Shown here: positions 9,850 to 17,367 of the stretch, one piece after another
Layout of the letters: each line of letters opens with the position of its first letter
How positions within the stretch are numbered: position 1 is the first letter of the stretch
Source: Rhizobium sp. Q54
GTDB lineage: Bacteria > Pseudomonadota > Alphaproteobacteria > UBA2966 > CAIVPW01
DNA: 35,388 nucleotides
Assembly (NCBI GenBank): GCA_945889645.1
Contig: CAMDCA010000019.1
Span: 1-35,388 of the forward strand
Direction of reading: 5' to 3'
Made by a program: the position numbers and the translations under genes
Notes under the pieces: model-generated
What the model was told of the DNA's origin: nothing
The model's input: only the letters and a program-made list of their open reading frames with translations
Databases searched by the model: none

Positions 9850-10316
9850 AACTGTGTCTGCCCCTTGGCCCTTGGAATGGCGCCGGAGTGTACTTGGCCG
9901 CGCCCGCGGCGCAAGGCGCCGTGGCGCCCGCCGAAGCCGACGACGATGAAGCCAGGTAGCGAGCCTGTGCGATGGTCACGGTGCCTTTCGCCGACCAAAC
10001 CGTCCCGTCCACCTTGCATAGGGGAAGGCGAACACGCACGTGGCGGACCGGCCGAAACGCCGCTCAGCCGCGGAATGCCTGGGCCGTGCAACACTCTGTT
10101 ACCCAGCAACGATTGATGCCCCTGCGGCCGTATGTCTCAATGCCGGGACGAATTGTACGGGCGGCACCCGGTGATTTGGGGCTGGCCTTCGAGCGACGGA
10201 TCGCGCCGCGCCTGACGTTGAATAGGCGGCGTTTCGCTCGGAGTGAAGCCAGGTCTGGTCGGGTGCCGGACATTGTCGGGTCGCCGTTGCCAAGCCCGGG
10301 GAGTTATTTCGCTCCG
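9850..10316. other. Divergent intergenic region (467 bases)
   Basis: This separates the minus-strand SNase-like gene from the plus-strand ECF sigma operon and must hold promoters for both. The longer frames that cross it (9972 onward and several on the minus strand) have no domain and no conserved look, so I do not call them. A promoter recognised by the ECF factor itself would be expected here, but I cannot identify one by eye. Confidence 0.4.
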
Positions 10317-10883
10317 ATGTTGCAGCCACTTCTTTCGCCGCACAGTGACGACGCGTTGATGGGGCGCCTACGCGGAGGCGACGGCGATGCCTTTGCCGAG
10401 TTACTCGGTCGCCACCTCGGCGCCGTGGCCCGGTTCTCCTACCGCATGATTGGAAATGCCGCTGAAGCCGACGACATCGCCCAGGAGACCTTCCTGCGAC
10501 TTTGGCGCGGCCGTGAGCGCTGGGAGCCGCGCGCCCAGGTCCGCACTTGGCTGCTGCGCGTCGCCCGCAACCTGTGCATCGACCGTTTCCGCCGCCGTGA
10601 GGTGGTTACCGACGAATTCCCGGATCTGCCCGACCTGCGGCCGACGCCGGCCGGCAACCTCCAGGCACGCGAAGTCGAACGCATCGTTGCCAAGGCCCTG
10701 GCCGAGCTACCGGAGCGGCAACGCGCAGCCATCGGACTCGTATATTATGAAGGACTTAGCAATATCGAGGCAGCCCAGGTGCTGGACGTCAGCATCGACG
10801 CCCTCGAGTCGTTGCTGGCGCGCGGGCGACGCAGCCTGCGCACCAACCTCAACGCCCTTCACCCTCACCTCGGGGAGATATGA
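10317..10883 (+). CDS. ECF-type RNA polymerase sigma factor
   Basis: A 188-residue group 4 sigma factor. Region 2 is at about residues 20-90 with FSYRMIGNAAEADDIAQETFLRLW and the core-binding and -10 recognition WLLRVARNLCIDRFRRRE. Region 4 is at about 125-180 with LAELPERQRAAIGLVYYEGLSNIEAAQVLDVS and ALESLLARGRRSLR. There is no region 3. ATG 10317 is chosen because the domain starts directly after it; the frame is open further upstream without domain content. It is followed after 31 bases by a putative anti-sigma gene and then a sensor-like gene and an efflux pump. The natural reading is a sigma factor controlling this operon and perhaps itself. Confidence 0.93.
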   Translation: MLQPLLSPHSDDALMGRLRGGDGDAFAELLGRHLGAVARFSYRMIGNAAEADDIAQETFLRLWRGRERWEPRAQVRTWLLRVARNLCIDRFRRREVVTDEFPDLPDLRPTPAGNLQAREVERIVAKALAELPERQRAAIGLVYYEGLSNIEAAQVLDVSIDALESLLARGRRSLRTNLNALHPHLGEI

Positions 10884-10914
10884 GACGAAGGTGATGCGGC
10901 GGGCGGGGACTTGA

Positions 10915-11436
10915 ATGGCGGAACGGGATTCTCAGCGCGATAGGGCGCCGGAGCGCACGCACGCGTCCGGCGACCACGCACGTGCGCGCACCGTGCTCGG
11001 TGCCTATGGCGCCGTGCCGGCGCGCTGGCCGGTGGGTGAGCGCGACGGCGTGTTGTCCAGCGCGAACAGCGACCTGACGGTGGCGGCGCAACGGCGGCGC
11101 GAGGCCGCGCTTGACGGCCTTCTCGATTCGGCGCCGCGCCACGTTCCGGCGGCCGCGCTGATGGCGCGCATTCGTCTGGCGGCGGTGACGGCGCCTCACT
11201 CGGGCTGGAGTGTCGCGTTGGACTTGCTGTTCGGCGACGTTACGCGCGCGACCTTGATGCGTTCAGCAACCGCGTTGTCTGCCGCCGTAGTGCTCGGTGT
11301 CGGCCTGGGTACTTGGTGGACGCCGGCGGAAGAGCCGGACCTGCTGGCCGAGGAATACGTGACGCTGGCATTCGCGCATGACCTGCTGAGCGGCGGCGGA
11401 TTCGGGGAGACAAGCCCCGGGAGCGTGATGGAATGA
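10915..11436 (+). CDS. Putative membrane anti-sigma factor
   Basis: A 173-residue protein with a soluble N-terminal part and one transmembrane helix at about residues 116-136 (ATALSAAVVLGVGLGTWW). The N-terminal part contains the pattern VLGAYGAVPARWPVGERDGV, seen in alphaproteobacterial anti-sigma-like proteins coded after ECF genes. It lacks the H-x3-C-x2-C zinc motif of ZAS anti-sigma factors. Position right after the sigma gene and the membrane topology support an anti-sigma role: holding the sigma factor at the inner membrane until a periplasmic signal arrives. Its stop overlaps the ATG of the next gene (ATGA). Confidence 0.6.
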   Translation: MAERDSQRDRAPERTHASGDHARARTVLGAYGAVPARWPVGERDGVLSSANSDLTVAAQRRREAALDGLLDSAPRHVPAAALMARIRLAAVTAPHSGWSVALDLLFGDVTRATLMRSATALSAAVVLGVGLGTWWTPAEEPDLLAEEYVTLAFAHDLLSGGGFGETSPGSVME

Positions 11437-11882
11437 TTTCTTCGACCCGCATTTGGCGCGCAGTCCTCGTCGGCTCACTGGCGCTCAACCTGTTCATCGC
11501 CGGGTTCGTCGTGGCGCAGGTGGCGCGCGGCGACAAGGTGGTGACGGCGCCGGCCGCAGCGCGCGCGGCCCAACCCCTCTCCCGGCAGGCGCCGGAAGTG
11601 CGCCGCGTGGTCGAGCAGAACGACAAGGTCGTGCGGCCCAACCTGGTAAACGTGCGCAAGGCCAATGAGGCCGTGAGCACCGCGTTGCTGGCCGAGCCGT
11701 TCGACGCGGAGCGCCTGACCAAGGCGCTGGAGCGCCTGCGCAGCGCGACACTGACGTCGCAGAAGGCGCTGCACGGCGCCATGTTCGAAACGGTTGCGAC
11801 GATGTCGCCGGAGCAGCGGCGGCAGTTTGCCGAAGCAACCAAGCGTACTGCTGCGGAACGTGTCTTTCTCCTGGGGCAGTGA
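11433..11882 (+). CDS. Periplasmic heavy-metal-sensor/LTxxQ-like protein
   Basis: A 149-residue protein with an N-terminal membrane anchor (residues about 8-30, AVLVGSLALNLFIAGFVVAQ) and a helical periplasmic part. The anchor style and the helical hairpin ending in TMSPEQRRQFAEATKRT resemble the Metal_resist/CnrR-type periplasmic sensors and the Spy/CpxP LTxxQ family (here MSPEQ). Such proteins tune ECF/anti-sigma pairs or bind misfolded proteins and metals. The start codon overlaps the anti-sigma stop, and the stop overlaps a possible GTG of the adaptor gene, so the operon is tightly coupled. Metal specificity cannot be read: there is no Cys or Met/His cluster of note. Confidence 0.68.
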   Translation: MISSTRIWRAVLVGSLALNLFIAGFVVAQVARGDKVVTAPAAARAAQPLSRQAPEVRRVVEQNDKVVRPNLVNVRKANEAVSTALLAEPFDAERLTKALERLRSATLTSQKALHGAMFETVATMSPEQRRQFAEATKRTAAERVFLLGQ

Positions 11883-11884
11883 CC

Positions 11885-13867
11885 ATGATCAACCAAGGTT
11901 TTCGTCGCGGCGCTTGGACTCGCCGCCTGGTGCAGGGTGCCGTTGTCGTCGTGGTGGCAGGCGGCGCCGGCTACTACTTCCTGCAAGCGCGCGCCGAGGG
12001 CGGACCGGTTGAGTACCGCTTCGGCACGGTCGAGCGCGGCACCATCACCAACGTCGTGTCGTCCACCGGCAAGGTGACGGCGGTCGGTGAGGTGAAGATC
12101 TCGAGCCAGGTCGCCGGACAGGTCATCGAGGTGATGGCGGACTACAACACCCCGGTCACCGTCGGCCAGATCCTGGCCAAGCTCGACCCGGAAGCATTCC
12201 TGTCCAAGGTGGCGCAAGCCGAAGCCGACCTCGCCATCAGCCGCGCGTCGCTGGTCTCGAACAAGGCGTCGGTCGAGCGCTCGCAGTCGGACCTCCGCAA
12301 CGGCGACGCGTCGCTGCAGTCGCTGCAGGCGCAGCTGAACAACTCGCGGCTGGCGCTGGAGTCTGCCGAGCGCGACTACAACCTGCAGCGCGAGCTGTAC
12401 GCGCGCAACGTCGTCGCCACCAAGGCGGTCGACGATTCGACCACCAAGTATGAGCAGGCCAAGACCAACTTCGAGCAGGTCACCGCCAACGTTGCCGGCA
12501 GCATCGCCACGCAGGACGGCCGCAAGGCATCGCTGGCGCAATCGAATGCCAGCGTGACGACCGCAGAAGCGCAGGTGAAGCAGCGCGAGGCACAGCTCGC
12601 TTCGGCCAAGATCGAACTCGAGCGCACGGTGATCAAGGCGCCGGTCAACGGCACCGTCATCGACCGCACGGCCGAGGTCGGCCAGACCATTCAGAACAAC
12701 TCCAATGCCCCGCTGTTCACCGTGGCGCAGGACCTGCGCCAGATGCAGCTCGAGGTCAGCGTCGATGAGGCTGACATCGGCAAGATCCAGCAGGGCATGG
12801 CGATCAAGTTCAACGTCGACGCGTTCCCCGGCCGCGAGTTCCAGGCCACCGTGCGTCAGGTGCGCTTGGCGCCGAAGACGGTGCAGAACGTCGTCACCTA
12901 CACGATCATCGCGCAGGCTCCCAACCAGGACCTGTCGCTGTTGCCGGGCATGACGGCGACCGCACGCGTCATCATCGAAGAGCGCGCTGCCGCGATGCGC
13001 ATTCCGAACTCGGCGCTGCGCTACACGCCCGCCGGGTTCGTGGCACCGGTTGCGGCGACTCCCGCCGCAGGCGGCGGCCAGGCGGTCGCCCAAGGCGGCG
13101 GCCAGGGTGGCCAAGCGGCCGCTCAAGCCGGCGGCCAAGGCAATCGCAACCCGCAGGCGGCAGCCGGTGGCGGTAACGCCCAAGCGGCGGCTGGTGGTGC
13201 CAACGCCGCTGGCCAGGGCGGTGCACGCGCCGCGCAGGCTGGGGGCGGACAAGGAGGCCAGGGCGGACAAGGAGGCGCGGCAGGCGCCCAGTTGGCGCAA
13301 CTCGCCCAGCTTGGCCTGACCGACGCGCAGCAGCAGACGATCACGCAGGCGATCACAGCTGCCCGCACCCAGGCACAGGCCGGCGGCGGCACGGCGCAAG
13401 AAATTCAGCAGCGCGTGCAGGCGTCGCAGCGCGCGGCAATCGTCGCCGCTCTGACTCCGGAGCAGCGCACCCGCTTCGAGGCGTTGGAACAACAGCCGGC
13501 AGCCGCACCGGGTGGTGCAGTCGGCGCCGCCGGCGGTGGCGGGCAGGCGGCGGCGCCGGTCGCCGCAGCCGATGTCCGTACCCTGACGGCGGGCGGCGCG
13601 CGCAATGCTGCCAGCCGCGCACGCGCGGCACGCGTGTTCATCCTGGGCCCCGACGGCAAGCCGGTGGCGGTCAGCGTGATGATCGGCATCACCGACGGCG
13701 GCTTTACCGAGATGGTGCAGGGCGACCTGCAGCCCGGCACCAAGGTCATCACCGGCTCGAACGAGGTCGCGGCCGCGGCCCCGGCAGCCAATGCCAACAA
13801 TCCGCTCGGCGGCGTGTTTGGCGGCGGCGGCGGCGGCGGCGCGGGCCCGCAGGTGTTCCTGAAGTGA
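11885..13867 (+). CDS. macA-like: MacA-type periplasmic adaptor with large Gly/Ala/Gln-rich insertion
   Basis: The membrane-fusion protein of an ABC export pump, anchored by one N-terminal helix (residues about 13-30). In order: first half of the lipoyl domain (VEYRFGTVERGTITNVV, SSQVAGQVIEV), a long coiled-coil hairpin (about 95-240), second lipoyl half (VIKAPVNGTVIDRTAEVGQTI), and a beta-barrel (LEVSVDEADIGKIQQG to LPGMTATARVII). The membrane-proximal domain is then split by a Gly/Ala/Gln-rich stretch (about 390-475). Inside the added part are two LTxxQ motifs, LTDAQ at 478 and LTPEQ at 523, in helical sequence. A second Gly/Ala-rich linker leads to the final VFILGPDGKPVAVSVMIGITDGGFTEM strands and a poly-Gly tail. 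At 660 residues it is about 250 longer than usual MacA. GTG 11879 is an alternative start. Confidence 0.9.
   Translation: MINQGFRRGAWTRRLVQGAVVVVVAGGAGYYFLQARAEGGPVEYRFGTVERGTITNVVSSTGKVTAVGEVKISSQVAGQVIEVMADYNTPVTVGQILAKLDPEAFLSKVAQAEADLAISRASLVSNKASVERSQSDLRNGDASLQSLQAQLNNSRLALESAERDYNLQRELYARNVVATKAVDDSTTKYEQAKTNFEQVTANVAGSIATQDGRKASLAQSNASVTTAEAQVKQREAQLASAKIELERTVIKAPVNGTVIDRTAEVGQTIQNNSNAPLFTVAQDLRQMQLEVSVDEADIGKIQQGMAIKFNVDAFPGREFQATVRQVRLAPKTVQNVVTYTIIAQAPNQDLSLLPGMTATARVIIEERAAAMRIPNSALRYTPAGFVAPVAATPAAGGGQAVAQGGGQGGQAAAQAGGQGNRNPQAAAGGGNAQAAAGGANAAGQGGARAAQAGGGQGGQGGQGGAAGAQLAQLAQLGLTDAQQQTITQAITAARTQAQAGGGTAQEIQQRVQASQRAAIVAALTPEQRTRFEALEQQPAAAPGGAVGAAGGGGQAAAPVAAADVRTLTAGGARNAASRARAARVFILGPDGKPVAVSVMIGITDGGFTEMVQGDLQPGTKVITGSNEVAAAAPAANANNPLGGVFGGGGGGGAGPQVFLK
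13040..13310 (+). repeat. Low-complexity Gly/Ala/Gln coding repeat within the adaptor gene
   Basis: The DNA repeats short units such as GGCGGCCAGG and CAAGGCGGC that encode GGQGGQ, AQAGGQ and AAAGGGN runs. Composition differs clearly from the flanking adaptor sequence. Such a tract can expand or shrink by slippage, so length variation between strains is expected. Confidence 0.7.
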
Positions 13868-13895
13868 TCGACCTCGGACTGAAGAAGCAGCAGTA

Positions 13896-14642
13896 ATGGC
13901 CAGCCCAGTCGTACAGACCATCGATCTCCGCAAGGAGTATCGAATGGGAACCAACGTGGTGAACGCACTCGCCGGCGTGTCGGTGCGCATCGATCAGGGT
14001 GAGTTCGTCGCCGTCATGGGGCCGTCCGGCTCCGGCAAGACGACGTACATGAACCTGCTCGGGTGCCTCGATCGGCCGACCTCGGGCAAGTACCTGTTCG
14101 AAGGGCAGGAAATCTCGACCTTCGCGCCCACCGAGCTGGCACGGCTGCGCAACCAGAAGATCGGCTTCGTGTTCCAGCAGTTCAACCTGCTGCAGCGCAT
14201 CACGGCGCTCGACAACGTCGCCCTGCCCTTGGCCTATGGCAGACTGCCGCGCGCCGAACGGCGCAAGCGCGCCGAACATGCCTTGACGGAGGTCGGCTTG
14301 GCCGACCGCATGGATCACCGCCCGGTGCAGCTGTCCGGTGGACAGCAGCAGCGCGTCGCCATTGCTCGGGCCATCGTCGGCTCGCCGTCCCTCATCTTGG
14401 CGGATGAACCGACCGGCGCGCTCGATTCCAAGACCGGTGTCGAGATCATGGCGATCCTGCAGGACCTCAACCGGCGCGGAATCACGGTCGTGCTGGTCAC
14501 CCATGAACACGACATCGCCGAGTACGCCGACCGCGTTCTGACGTTCCGCGACGGCCGCATGATTCGCGACGAGAAGGGTCTGGGCCGCCGGGCCGACCAG
14601 CCCACGCCACAGCAACCTGCACAGTTGGTTGCTGTGCACTAG
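13896..14642 (+). CDS. macB-like (ATPase): MacB-type ABC transporter ATPase subunit
   Basis: A 248-residue nucleotide-binding protein of the MacB/LolD class that powers the pump from the cytoplasm. Walker A GPSGSGKT is at residues 42-49, the Q-loop is FVFQQFNLL, the signature LSGGQQQRVAIARA, Walker B LILADEPTGALD, and the switch His is in VTHEHDIAEYADR. MacB of E. coli fuses this domain to the permease; here they are separate genes, as is common. The C-terminus carries an extra Gln/Pro-rich tail. The gene starts 28 bases after the adaptor and is followed 27 bases later by the permease. Confidence 0.93.
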   Translation: MASPVVQTIDLRKEYRMGTNVVNALAGVSVRIDQGEFVAVMGPSGSGKTTYMNLLGCLDRPTSGKYLFEGQEISTFAPTELARLRNQKIGFVFQQFNLLQRITALDNVALPLAYGRLPRAERRKRAEHALTEVGLADRMDHRPVQLSGGQQQRVAIARAIVGSPSLILADEPTGALDSKTGVEIMAILQDLNRRGITVVLVTHEHDIAEYADRVLTFRDGRMIRDEKGLGRRADQPTPQQPAQLVAVH

Positions 14643-15899: not shown

Positions 15900-16011
15900 T
15901 ATTCTTGGCGGGCGGCTCTTGCGCACGGAGCCGGATATCACTTCATTGGCTCAGGTGGCACGGCGGCGAAAACTCCGCCTGTCCGGCCTGCGCGGTTCGA
16001 GGAGACGTAGC

Positions 16012-17367
16012 ATGCGTACTGGGGGTCGTTTCGTTCTTGCACTGGTGCTGCCGCTGGCAGGCACCCTCCCCTTGGCCCTTCCCGCCGGCGCCCAAACCCT
16101 TACCGATGCGCTGAGCCAGGCCTACCTGACCAACCCAAGCCTCGCGGCCCAGCGCGCCAGCATGCGCGCCAGCGACGAAGCGGTGGCTCAGGCCAATTCG
16201 CAATGGAAGCCCTCGGTGTCGATGAGCACCGGCATCACCACCACCTACACCAGCGGAACCACCGCCGCGACGACCACCGGCACGCCGAACCTGACCCTGT
16301 CGGTCAGCCAGCCGCTGTACCGCGGCGGCCGCATCGACGCCGGTATCGACCAGGCCGAGGCCAACGTGCTGGCCGCCCGTGCGCGCCTGCGCACGACGGA
16401 GCAATCCGTGCTGTCGTCGGTGGTCGAAGCCTACATGGGCGTACTGCGCGATCAAGCGGTGCTGCAGCTCAACACCAATTCAGAACAGGTACTGCAGACC
16501 GAGTTGCAGGCCGCCCGCAACCGCTTCCAGCTTGGCGCCGCGACCTCGACCGACGTGGCAACCGCCGAATCGCGCCTCTCCAATGCTTCGGCCACTCGCA
16601 TTCAGGCAGACGGCGCGTTCCGCACCAGTTTGGCGAACTTCGAGCGGATCGTCGGCGTGGCGCCGACCAGCATGACGACGCCCGACCCCCTCGGCCTTCT
16701 GCCGAATAGCCTGGAGGATGCAGTCGCCATCGCGCTCAACGAGAGCCCGACGGTGCTGACGTCGTTCTACGCCGAGGCCGCCGCCCAGGCGACCTTGCGC
16801 ACGGCCAACGGCGCGCGCCTGCCGACCGTGTCGCTGTCGGCGAGCACGTCGCGCCGTTCTCCCGATTGGCCGGATTGGACGCCGGCGACCTACTCAAGCC
16901 AGATCGGCGTTTCGGTGTCGGTGCCGTTGTACCAGTCGGGCGGCGAATTCTCATCCATCCGCTCGGCACAGGAAAACCTGTCGGCTGCGCGCCTCAACCT
17001 CGAGGACGCGCGCCGCACGGTGAAGCAGACGGTGACGCAGAACTGGCAGACGCTGGCGACCTCGCGGGCACAGATCCTGGCGCGCGGCGACCAAGTGCGC
17101 GCCTCGGAAAGCGCCCTGCGCGGGTTCCGCCAGGAGTACGAAGTCGGCGCCCGCACGCTGCTGGAAGTGCTGAATGCCGAGCAGGACTTGCTCAACGCCC
17201 GCGTCTCGCTGGTCACTTCGCGCCGCGATGAAGTGGTGGCGAGCTACAACCTGCTGTCGGCGATGGGCCGTCTGACGGCACAGACCCTGAGCCTGCCGGT
17301 GCCGATCTACGACCCGGCGGTTCACTACAACCAGGTCGAGAGCAAGTGGTGGGGAACGACGCCGTAA
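16012..17367 (+). CDS. tolC-like: TolC-family outer membrane efflux channel
   Basis: A 451-residue outer-membrane factor with a cleavable signal peptide (residues about 1-27, ending LPAGAQ). Two repeats of the TolC/OEP fold are visible, each with the long helical hairpin pattern: first LTDALSQAYLTNPSLAAQRASM, later LEDAVAIALNESPTVLTSF. The family motifs VSQPLYRGGRIDAGIDQAEANV and VSVPLYQSGGEFSSIRSAQENL mark the start of each second helix. The C-terminal VGARTLLEVLNAEQDLLNARVSLV is equally typical. I chose ATG 16012 for its ribosome binding site (GAGGAGA) and the signal peptide. It follows the permease after 112 bases and completes a tripartite pump with the adaptor and MacB subunits. Confidence 0.94.
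   Translation: MRTGGRFVLALVLPLAGTLPLALPAGAQTLTDALSQAYLTNPSLAAQRASMRASDEAVAQANSQWKPSVSMSTGITTTYTSGTTAATTTGTPNLTLSVSQPLYRGGRIDAGIDQAEANVLAARARLRTTEQSVLSSVVEAYMGVLRDQAVLQLNTNSEQVLQTELQAARNRFQLGAATSTDVATAESRLSNASATRIQADGAFRTSLANFERIVGVAPTSMTTPDPLGLLPNSLEDAVAIALNESPTVLTSFYAEAAAQATLRTANGARLPTVSLSASTSRRSPDWPDWTPATYSSQIGVSVSVPLYQSGGEFSSIRSAQENLSAARLNLEDARRTVKQTVTQNWQTLATSRAQILARGDQVRASESALRGFRQEYEVGARTLLEVLNAEQDLLNARVSLVTSRRDEVVASYNLLSAMGRLTAQTLSLPVPIYDPAVHYNQVESKWWGTTP

What the first reader, a model, noticed from the sequence alone, without database searches (positions are those of the whole stretch)
11885..13867. MacA-type adaptor enlarged by a Gly/Ala/Gln tract with its own LTxxQ motifs
The adaptor is about 660 residues where MacA has about 400. 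The extra sequence splits the membrane-proximal domain, which contacts the MacB permease. It contains LTDAQ (residue 478) and LTPEQ (523) in helical sequence between flexible linkers. LTxxQ is the hallmark of Spy/CpxP periplasmic chaperone-sensors. An adaptor that carries a built-in chaperone or sensor module could deliver misfolded or bound cargo straight to the pump, or gate the pump by stress. I know of no described system with this layout.
Basis: partly seen in the sequence, partly recalled or inferred. Interest (0 to 1): 0.68.

Follow-up and report, generated by a model that had tools for sequence, protein, structure and literature searches.

The report
Efflux-pump adaptor with built-in Spy-like domain
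A bacterial pump's connector protein carries, in the loop that faces the pump's entrance, a small helical domain related to the periplasmic chaperone Spy; many related pumps have it, and what it does there is still to be tested.

Summary
The 660-residue MacA-type adaptor (11885-13867) carries about 215 extra residues in the membrane-proximal-domain loop that is about 7 residues long in E. coli MacA. Inside flexible Gly/Ala/Gln linkers sits a ~75-residue helical module with LTDAQ (478) and LTPEQ (523).

The module is real, conserved and related to Spy/CpxP. A profile of it ranks the four Spy sequences first among 177,635 PDB sequences (E 4e-7); the same alignment reversed finds no Spy. Pfam LTXXQ matches 33 of 43 module sequences; the window's own copy scores 24.1 bits, just under the 24.3 cut-off. 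The L and Q of both motifs are the only four near-invariant columns. AlphaFold2 gives four helices in Spy order. The module profile hits 47 of 80 MacA-like adaptors examined. Full-span matches occur in 22 family-level groups, three outside the window's class. The low-complexity tract is a local elaboration.

Chaperone or sensor function is not shown. The module lacks His/Cys in 38 of 43 copies, against CnrX-type metal sensing. I judge a tethered Spy-like client clamp at the pump mouth most likely; a regulatory contact or decorative insert remain open. Nine literature searches found no description.

The parts
11885..13867 (+). MacA-type periplasmic adaptor, 660 aa
   Evidence: ORF and translation; TIGR01730 RND_mfp 138 bits and MacA model 111 bits; PDB relatives are MacA chains, E 1.7e-19
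11885..13030 (+). Adaptor core: N-terminal hydrophobic segment, lipoyl/hairpin/beta-barrel and first membrane-proximal strand (residues 1-382)
   Evidence: Pfam HlyD_D23, HlyD_3, Biotin_lipoyl; alignments
13031..13279 (+). Upstream Gly/Ala/Gln linker (residues 383-465)
   Evidence: pLDDT mostly 27-33; 41-55% identity with many gaps inside the genus
13280..13507 (+). Spy/CpxP-like LTxxQ module (residues 466-541)
   Evidence: Pfam LTXXQ E 6e-5; PDB profile search ranks Spy first; four helices predicted; dN/dS 0.14-0.37
13316..13330 (+). First motif, LTDAQ (residues 478-482)
   Evidence: L in 40 of 43 and Q in 41 of 43 modules
13451..13465 (+). Second motif, LTPEQ (residues 523-527)
   Evidence: L in 40 of 43 and Q in 42 of 43 modules
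13508..13627 (+). Downstream linker (residues 542-581)
   Evidence: low pLDDT; 56-79% identity with gaps
13628..13762 (+). Rest of the membrane-proximal domain (residues 582-626)
   Evidence: 82-89% identical in the genus, no gaps; aligned with E. coli MacA RYKVKL...VVIGE
11433..11882 (+). Membrane-anchored Metal_resist (CnrX-like) protein, a second Spy-superfamily protein in the operon
   Evidence: Pfam PF13801 E 1.7e-14; conserved at this place in family-level relatives
10915..11436 (+). Likely membrane-anchored anti-sigma factor (no family match; inferred from place and one hydrophobic segment)
   Evidence: no Pfam or NCBIfam hit; conserved position
9972..10883 (+). ECF sigma factor (true start probably further in)
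   Evidence: Sigma70_r2/r4_2; PRK05602 above its cut-off, 217 vs 208 bits, residues 124-298
13896..14642 (+). MacB-type ATPase subunit (separate gene)
   Evidence: best NCBIfam model is the MacB NBD region, 267 bits
14670..15899 (+). MacB-type permease (MacB_PCD + FtsX)
   Evidence: Pfam MacB_PCD E 1.4e-50, FtsX E 1.2e-21
15919..17367 (+). TolC-type outer-membrane channel
   Evidence: TIGR01844 331 bits, above cut-off

Best explanation
The adaptor of a MacA-MacB-TolC type pump carries a compact LTxxQ domain of the Spy/CpxP superfamily, inserted in the membrane-proximal loop that faces the MacB permease (identity and place in the sequence: shown). It works like a Spy half-cradle on a leash. Six copies per adaptor hexamer would surround the gap through which periplasmic substrates are thought to enter the MacA-MacB cavity, where they bind exposed, flexible or amphipathic peptide or protein segments transiently and without ATP. 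This would raise the local concentration of cargo, or shield it from aggregation, for the pump (inferred). In this family the long linkers let the module reach further; in relatives shorter linkers hold it closer.
For: Spy is the top PDB sequence match of two module profiles, and the reversed control finds none. Pfam LTXXQ matches 33 of 43 modules, the reversed control 0 of 12. The four near-invariant columns are the L and Q of both motifs. AlphaFold2 with only three sequences gives four helices, pLDDT 77; a second-look structural alignment puts Spy and CnrX chains near the top. It sits at the same insertion site in many families. Both MacB-type genes lie beside the adaptor in 44 of 44 module-bearing loci with enough sequence. 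His and Cys are almost absent, 38 of 43 with neither, so the module looks like a protein-binding rather than a metal-binding member. The reviews say that substrates may enter at the MacA-MacB interface (PMC5985334, passages), that Spy holds clients in a cradle without ATP (PMC4791398, passages), and that another adaptor, SilB, carries a metallochaperone domain (PMC4446572, passages).
Against: No experiment bears on function. The module is 28 residues shorter between motifs than Spy (45 against 73), so the client-binding surface may not be kept. Foldseek alone gives no match at E<=0.001 and no Spy among its 17 rows, and Z about 8 is weak for helical bundles. The module varies a lot between families (mean column identity 33%). 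Its presence changes at least 10 times on the tree, so the pump works without it. Net charge varies from -11 to +6 in the 12 modules printed, which gives no conserved client-binding charge. A common cargo is unknown.
Confidence: 0.5

Rival explanations
1. The module is a regulatory contact. Like CpxP or CnrX it docks on a partner, for instance the CnrX-like protein encoded just upstream, so that pump assembly or cargo is reported to the anti-sigma/ECF sigma pair, or the pump is gated.
For: The window operon is ECF sigma - probable anti-sigma - Metal_resist (CnrX-like) - adaptor - MacB ATPase - permease - TolC. This set, or the part of it inside the contig, stands beside 9 of 33 module-bearing loci read with large flanks (window included), in three families; one of these is divergently oriented. 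Spy forms dimers (PMC4791398, passages).
Against: 24 of the 33 loci show no such set in the stretch read, some of them cut by contig ends; one of the 24 has only a sigma-like gene downstream. The relative L044 keeps the sigma set although its module is reduced to one motif. The module is nearer to LTXXQ than to Metal_resist (33 against 2 of 43).
Confidence: 0.2
2. The module is a structural or nearly neutral decoration in a loop that tolerates inserts. It may stabilise the hexamer or reach the peptidoglycan, but has no client.
For: Repeated gain or loss: at least 10 changes, at least 4 forced by well-supported branches. Closely related adaptors lack it (L036-L039, about 50% identical; L147 beside L118). 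Other adaptors carry unrelated inserts of 27-68 residues at the same loop.
Against: The L and Q of both motifs stay while the linkers turn over; dN/dS in the module is like that of the core. A neutral insert would hardly keep one family-specific signature across about 22 families.
Confidence: 0.25
3. The insert is only low-complexity sequence and the two LTxxQ motifs are chance.
For: The surrounding tract is extremely Gly/Ala/Gln-rich, and the whole-protein Pfam scan does not list LTXXQ.
Against: Everything.
Confidence: 0.02
4. The module was copied from the neighbouring CnrX-like gene by duplication and fusion.
For: Both belong to the same superfamily and lie side by side; the neighbour ends with a related MSPEQR motif.
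Against: Metal_resist matches only 2 of 43 modules, LTXXQ 33. Profile comparison with the neighbour is weak (probability 8-10%). The neighbour's invariant His (10 of 10) is absent from the window module. The module occurs in many loci where no such neighbour was found.
Confidence: 0.03

Closest known systems
E. coli MacA (MacAB-TolC adaptor; PDB 3fpp, 5nik)
   Same: Same family, domain order, N-terminal anchor and MacB-type partner (PMC5985334 passages)
   Different: 371 aa; the membrane-proximal loop is about 7 residues, with no module. Here the ATPase and permease are separate genes.
Spy, E. coli periplasmic chaperone (PF07813 LTXXQ)
   Same: Two LTxxQ motifs at matching helix starts, four-helix order, best sequence match in the PDB
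   Different: Stand-alone soluble protein; 73 residues between the motif leucines against 45 here; chaperone activity was shown for Spy (PMC4791398, passages), nothing is shown here
CpxP (LTXXQ family, regulator)
   Same: Next PDB sequence match after Spy (E 0.0018)
   Different: Stand-alone; signals to CpxA (recalled); weaker match
CnrX / Metal_resist (PF13801)
   Same: Similar fold in the second-look alignment (3zg1, Z 6.3); a Metal_resist gene is in this operon
   Different: CnrX binds metal (the entry titles name Ni-bound forms); the module has no His or Cys in 38 of 43 copies
SilB, heavy-metal RND adaptor with a C-terminal CusF-like metallochaperone domain
   Same: Precedent for a periplasmic adaptor that carries a chaperone which also exists as a separate protein (PMC4446572, passages)
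   Different: Metal-binding beta-barrel at the C-terminus of an RND adaptor; here a helical LTxxQ fold inside the membrane-proximal domain of a MacB-type adaptor

Membership tests
MacA-type periplasmic adaptor | Sequence match to the adaptor family and to MacA | tested here: met
   TIGR01730 138 bits (cut-off 94.9), MacA model NF008606 111 bits, below its equivalog cut-off of 342; PDB MacA E 1.7e-19. Member of the adaptor family, not an equivalog of E. coli MacA.
MacA-type periplasmic adaptor | MacB-type ABC transporter and TolC in the same operon | tested here: met
LTXXQ (Spy/CpxP) family, module only | Two LTxxQ motifs, L and Q conserved | tested here: met
LTXXQ (Spy/CpxP) family, module only | Profile score above the family's curated cut-off | tested here: inconclusive
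   Window module 24.1 bits against 24.3; best of 43 relatives E 1.7e-8, 33 of 43 at E<=0.01
LTXXQ (Spy/CpxP) family, module only | Spy-like four-helix fold | tested here: inconclusive
   Four helices in the right order, pLDDT 77; Spy chains Z 6.0-8.0 in the second look; Foldseek alone lists no Spy
LTXXQ (Spy/CpxP) family, module only | Cradle-shaped dimer and ATP-independent chaperone activity | not testable with these tools
   needs purified protein
CnrX/Metal_resist metal sensor, module only | Conserved His (and further) metal ligands | tested here: not met
   No His or Cys in 38 of 43 modules, none in the window's
CnrX/Metal_resist, gene 11433-11882 | PF13801 match, membrane anchor, conserved His, sigma/anti-sigma neighbours | tested here: met
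   PF13801 54.5 bits, cut-off 29.2; one His invariant in 10 of 10; neighbours. The full ligand set was not checked.

The most novel reading that the evidence does not exclude
A recurrent, undescribed class of MacB-type tripartite pumps wears a ring of six Spy-like clamps on the membrane-proximal rim of the adaptor. The clamps capture unfolded or amphipathic periplasmic peptides and proteins and hand them to the pump, making it a periplasmic protein/peptide disposal machine. In some lineages the same clamps also talk to a Spy-superfamily (CnrX-like) sensor that controls the operon's ECF sigma factor, so that load and expression are coupled.
Probability: 0.2. Interest if true: 0.85.

Novelty: new variant of a known kind. 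Interest (0 to 1): 0.6.

Why it matters
How MacB-type pumps choose substrates is poorly understood: the MacB review read here says that little is known about how MacB recognises substrates (PMC5985334, passages). A conserved chaperone-fold domain at the pump entrance gives a direct handle: it can be expressed alone, screened for clients and deleted. It would add a protein-quality-control fold to the known adaptor add-ons, of which SilB's metallochaperone domain is the example found. Because the module has come and gone several times between close relatives, natural with/without pairs exist for comparison.

Tried and rejected
Random low-complexity reading: rejected.

Metal-sensing by the module: tested by looking for His/Cys/Met. 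38 of 43 modules have no His or Cys, and 12 of 43 have none of His, Cys or Met.

Origin from the neighbouring CnrX-like gene: weak profile match only, and far fewer Metal_resist hits than LTXXQ hits.

hhalign of the module profile against single sequences gave only the first motif for Spy (E 1e-4, probability 57%) and for CpxP (E 0.002, 14%). I rest on the HMMER results instead.

Foldseek on the module model listed 17 rows, none at E<=0.001 and none Spy. The VIA-align second look puts 'VirG-like' 5io8 first and Spy/CnrX chains next; its own notes warn that Z below about 13 is weak for helical bundles. I used it only as support.

AlphaFold2 on the whole adaptor with three sequences was poor (mean pLDDT 49, pTM 0.30), so nothing is said about where the module sits in the assembled pump. 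A viral-contig scan found no relative. Tblastn of plasmids with one module-bearing adaptor found 20 records whose best places cover 27-62% of the query. Of these I opened three and read two adaptors, both without a module. So I name no cultured organism with the module.

Dropped or hand-set rows: in the tree L117, L121 and L122 were counted as module-bearing by eye although the module profile did not reach its threshold, and L044 (one motif left) was not counted. L049, L082, L083 and L114 were left out of the 43-sequence module alignment (one cut by a contig end, two with a long internal insert, one near-duplicate). Insert lengths were measured by a pattern that failed for some adaptors.

Nine full-text searches found no paper on an LTxxQ domain in a MacA-type adaptor. 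That library lacks most subscription journals and preprints.

Full report
WHAT IS THERE. The ORF at 11885-13867 (+) encodes a 660-residue periplasmic adaptor. It matches the RND/ABC adaptor family (TIGR01730, 138 bits, cut-off 94.9) and, below the equivalog cut-off, MacA; the nearest solved structures are MacA chains. Upstream in the same direction are an ECF sigma factor, a probable membrane-anchored anti-sigma factor (no family match) and a membrane-anchored Metal_resist (CnrX-like) protein. Downstream are a MacB-type ATPase, a MacB-type permease and a TolC-type channel.

WHERE THE EXTRA SEQUENCE LIES. The window's insert measures 217 residues by the pattern used. It consists of an upstream Gly/Ala/Gln linker (383-465), a helical module (466-541) with LTDAQ at 478 and LTPEQ at 523, and a downstream linker (542-581).

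THE MODULE IS REAL. In the genus, three other genomes with the whole gene carry it. Between the window and these mates it is 57-77% identical with at most one gap column and dN/dS of about 0.14-0.37; the upstream linker is 41-55% identical with 11-28 gap columns. In the wider set the inserts lose much of the low-complexity tract but keep the module. A profile of 12 modules, searched against 80 adaptors, hits 47 at i-E<1e-3, 35 of which were not in the profile; 33 have no hit. Of those 33, three (L117, L121, L122) have a similar insert below threshold, one (L044) keeps only the second motif, and the others look module-less. Measured insert lengths are 27-68 residues without and 112-230 with the module. 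Across 43 modules the only columns at 90% or more are L13, Q17, L58 and Q62, that is the L and Q of both motifs.

IT BELONGS TO THE SPY/CPXP SUPERFAMILY. The 12-sequence profile ranks the four Spy sequences first among 177,635 PDB sequences (E 3.8e-7 to 1.6e-6), with CpxP further down (E 0.11, 0.2); the next unrelated chain is at 0.0054. The 43-sequence profile again puts Spy at ranks 1-4 (9.1e-7 to 2.4e-6) with matches through both motifs, and CpxP at ranks 5 and 7 (0.0018, 0.0039); unrelated helical chains begin at 0.0023. The reversed 12-sequence alignment, same composition, gives GroEL at 0.018 and no Spy. Pfam LTXXQ matches 33 of 43 modules at E<=0.01 and 0 of 12 reversed ones. The window module alone scores 24.1 bits, a hair under the 24.3 cut-off, and the whole-protein scan does not list it. 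NCBIfam's CpxP-family model matches 5 of 12 at E<=1, and its Spy model 1 of 12.

STRUCTURE. Foldseek alone lists no significant match. The VIA-align second look puts a VirG-like protein first (Z 8.4), six Spy entries among its ten best rows (Z 6.0-8.0) and CnrX at 6.3 and 5.5. By the tool's own warning this is support, not proof. Compared with Spy the module is compact: 45 residues between the two motif leucines (478, 523) against 73 in Spy (counted from the alignment).

HOW WIDESPREAD. With a profile of the C-terminal half including the module, full-span matches (from position 1-2 to 196 or beyond of 212) occur in 26 of 386 genomes of the class and 18 of 397 of the phylum. Four genomes are in both, so these are 40 genomes in 22 family-level groups. 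Five of them, in three groups, lie outside the class. Two further genomes have the match in two pieces. These are lower bounds, since at most seven candidates per genome were scored, and three of the full-span loci are the below-threshold ones named above. On a tree of the adaptor core with the insert removed (80 rows; 50 with the module, 3 of these by eye; 29 without; 1 not counted) presence changes at least 10 times (10-12 in bootstraps), of which starred branches force at least 4. Whether gains or losses prevail is not settled. The window's genus also has a module-less adaptor, 48-50% identical, with no MacB-type operon beside it. The nearest named records are environmental genomes labelled Rhizobium sp. 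Q54 and Alphaproteobacteria.

NEIGHBOURS. Both MacB-type genes lie beside the adaptor in 44 of 44 module-bearing loci with enough sequence, window included; three more are cut by contig ends. Since the search profile was of this adaptor family, this mainly says that the module lives in MacB-type pumps. The sigma, anti-sigma and CnrX-like set, or what the contig holds of it, stands beside 9 of 33 module-bearing loci read with large flanks (window included), in three families. It also stands beside L044, whose module is degraded. So the sensor set and the module are associated in some lineages but neither needs the other.

HOW IT MOST LIKELY WORKS. Shown: the domain's identity, place, conservation and recurrence. 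From the literature (passages only): MacA forms hexamers over a MacB dimer and substrates may enter at the MacA-MacB interface (PMC5985334); Spy holds clients in a cradle without ATP (PMC4791398); the SilB adaptor carries a CusF-like metallochaperone (PMC4446572). Inferred: the module is a tethered Spy-like clamp near the entrance which binds flexible peptide or protein cargo. The near absence of His and Cys (38 of 43 with neither) argues against CnrX-type metal sensing. A regulatory contact with the CnrX-like neighbour, and a structural or nearly neutral role, are live rivals.

NOVELTY. Nine full-text searches found no description of an LTxxQ domain in a MacA-type adaptor. The parts are known and the combination appears not to be, so I call it a new variant of a known kind.

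Noticed in passing
window 9972-11882: ECF sigma - probable anti-sigma - CnrX-like (Metal_resist) gene set just upstream of the pump genes, a CnrYXH-like arrangement (recalled) driving or reporting on an ABC pump; one His is invariant in 10 of 10 of the CnrX-like proteins aligned.
   Followed up: partly
L036, L037, L038, L039: A module-less adaptor about 50% identical to the window's occurs in four genus mates without the MacB-type permease within the stretch read; its partner transporter is unknown.
   Followed up: partly
L044:4630-6579: A family member keeps the long Gly/Ala/Pro tract but only the second LTPEQ motif: the linkers seem to outlive the module.
   Followed up: partly
window 13280-13507: Synonymous divergence in the module (dS 1.1-1.6) is two to three times that of the adaptor core (about 0.5) between the same genomes; unexplained.
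   Followed up: no
L118 and L147: Two adaptors of one family outside the window's class, sisters on the tree, one with and one without the module: a natural pair for comparison.
   Followed up: no
window 11240-13990, - strand: A 916-codon open frame runs antisense to the adaptor; most likely a by-product of high G+C, not a gene.
   Followed up: no
PDB 5io8 / 5ihf: A Salmonella 'VirG-like' protein is the best structural match to the module model (Z 8.4) and also appears weakly in the profile searches; it may be another member of the superfamily.
   Followed up: no
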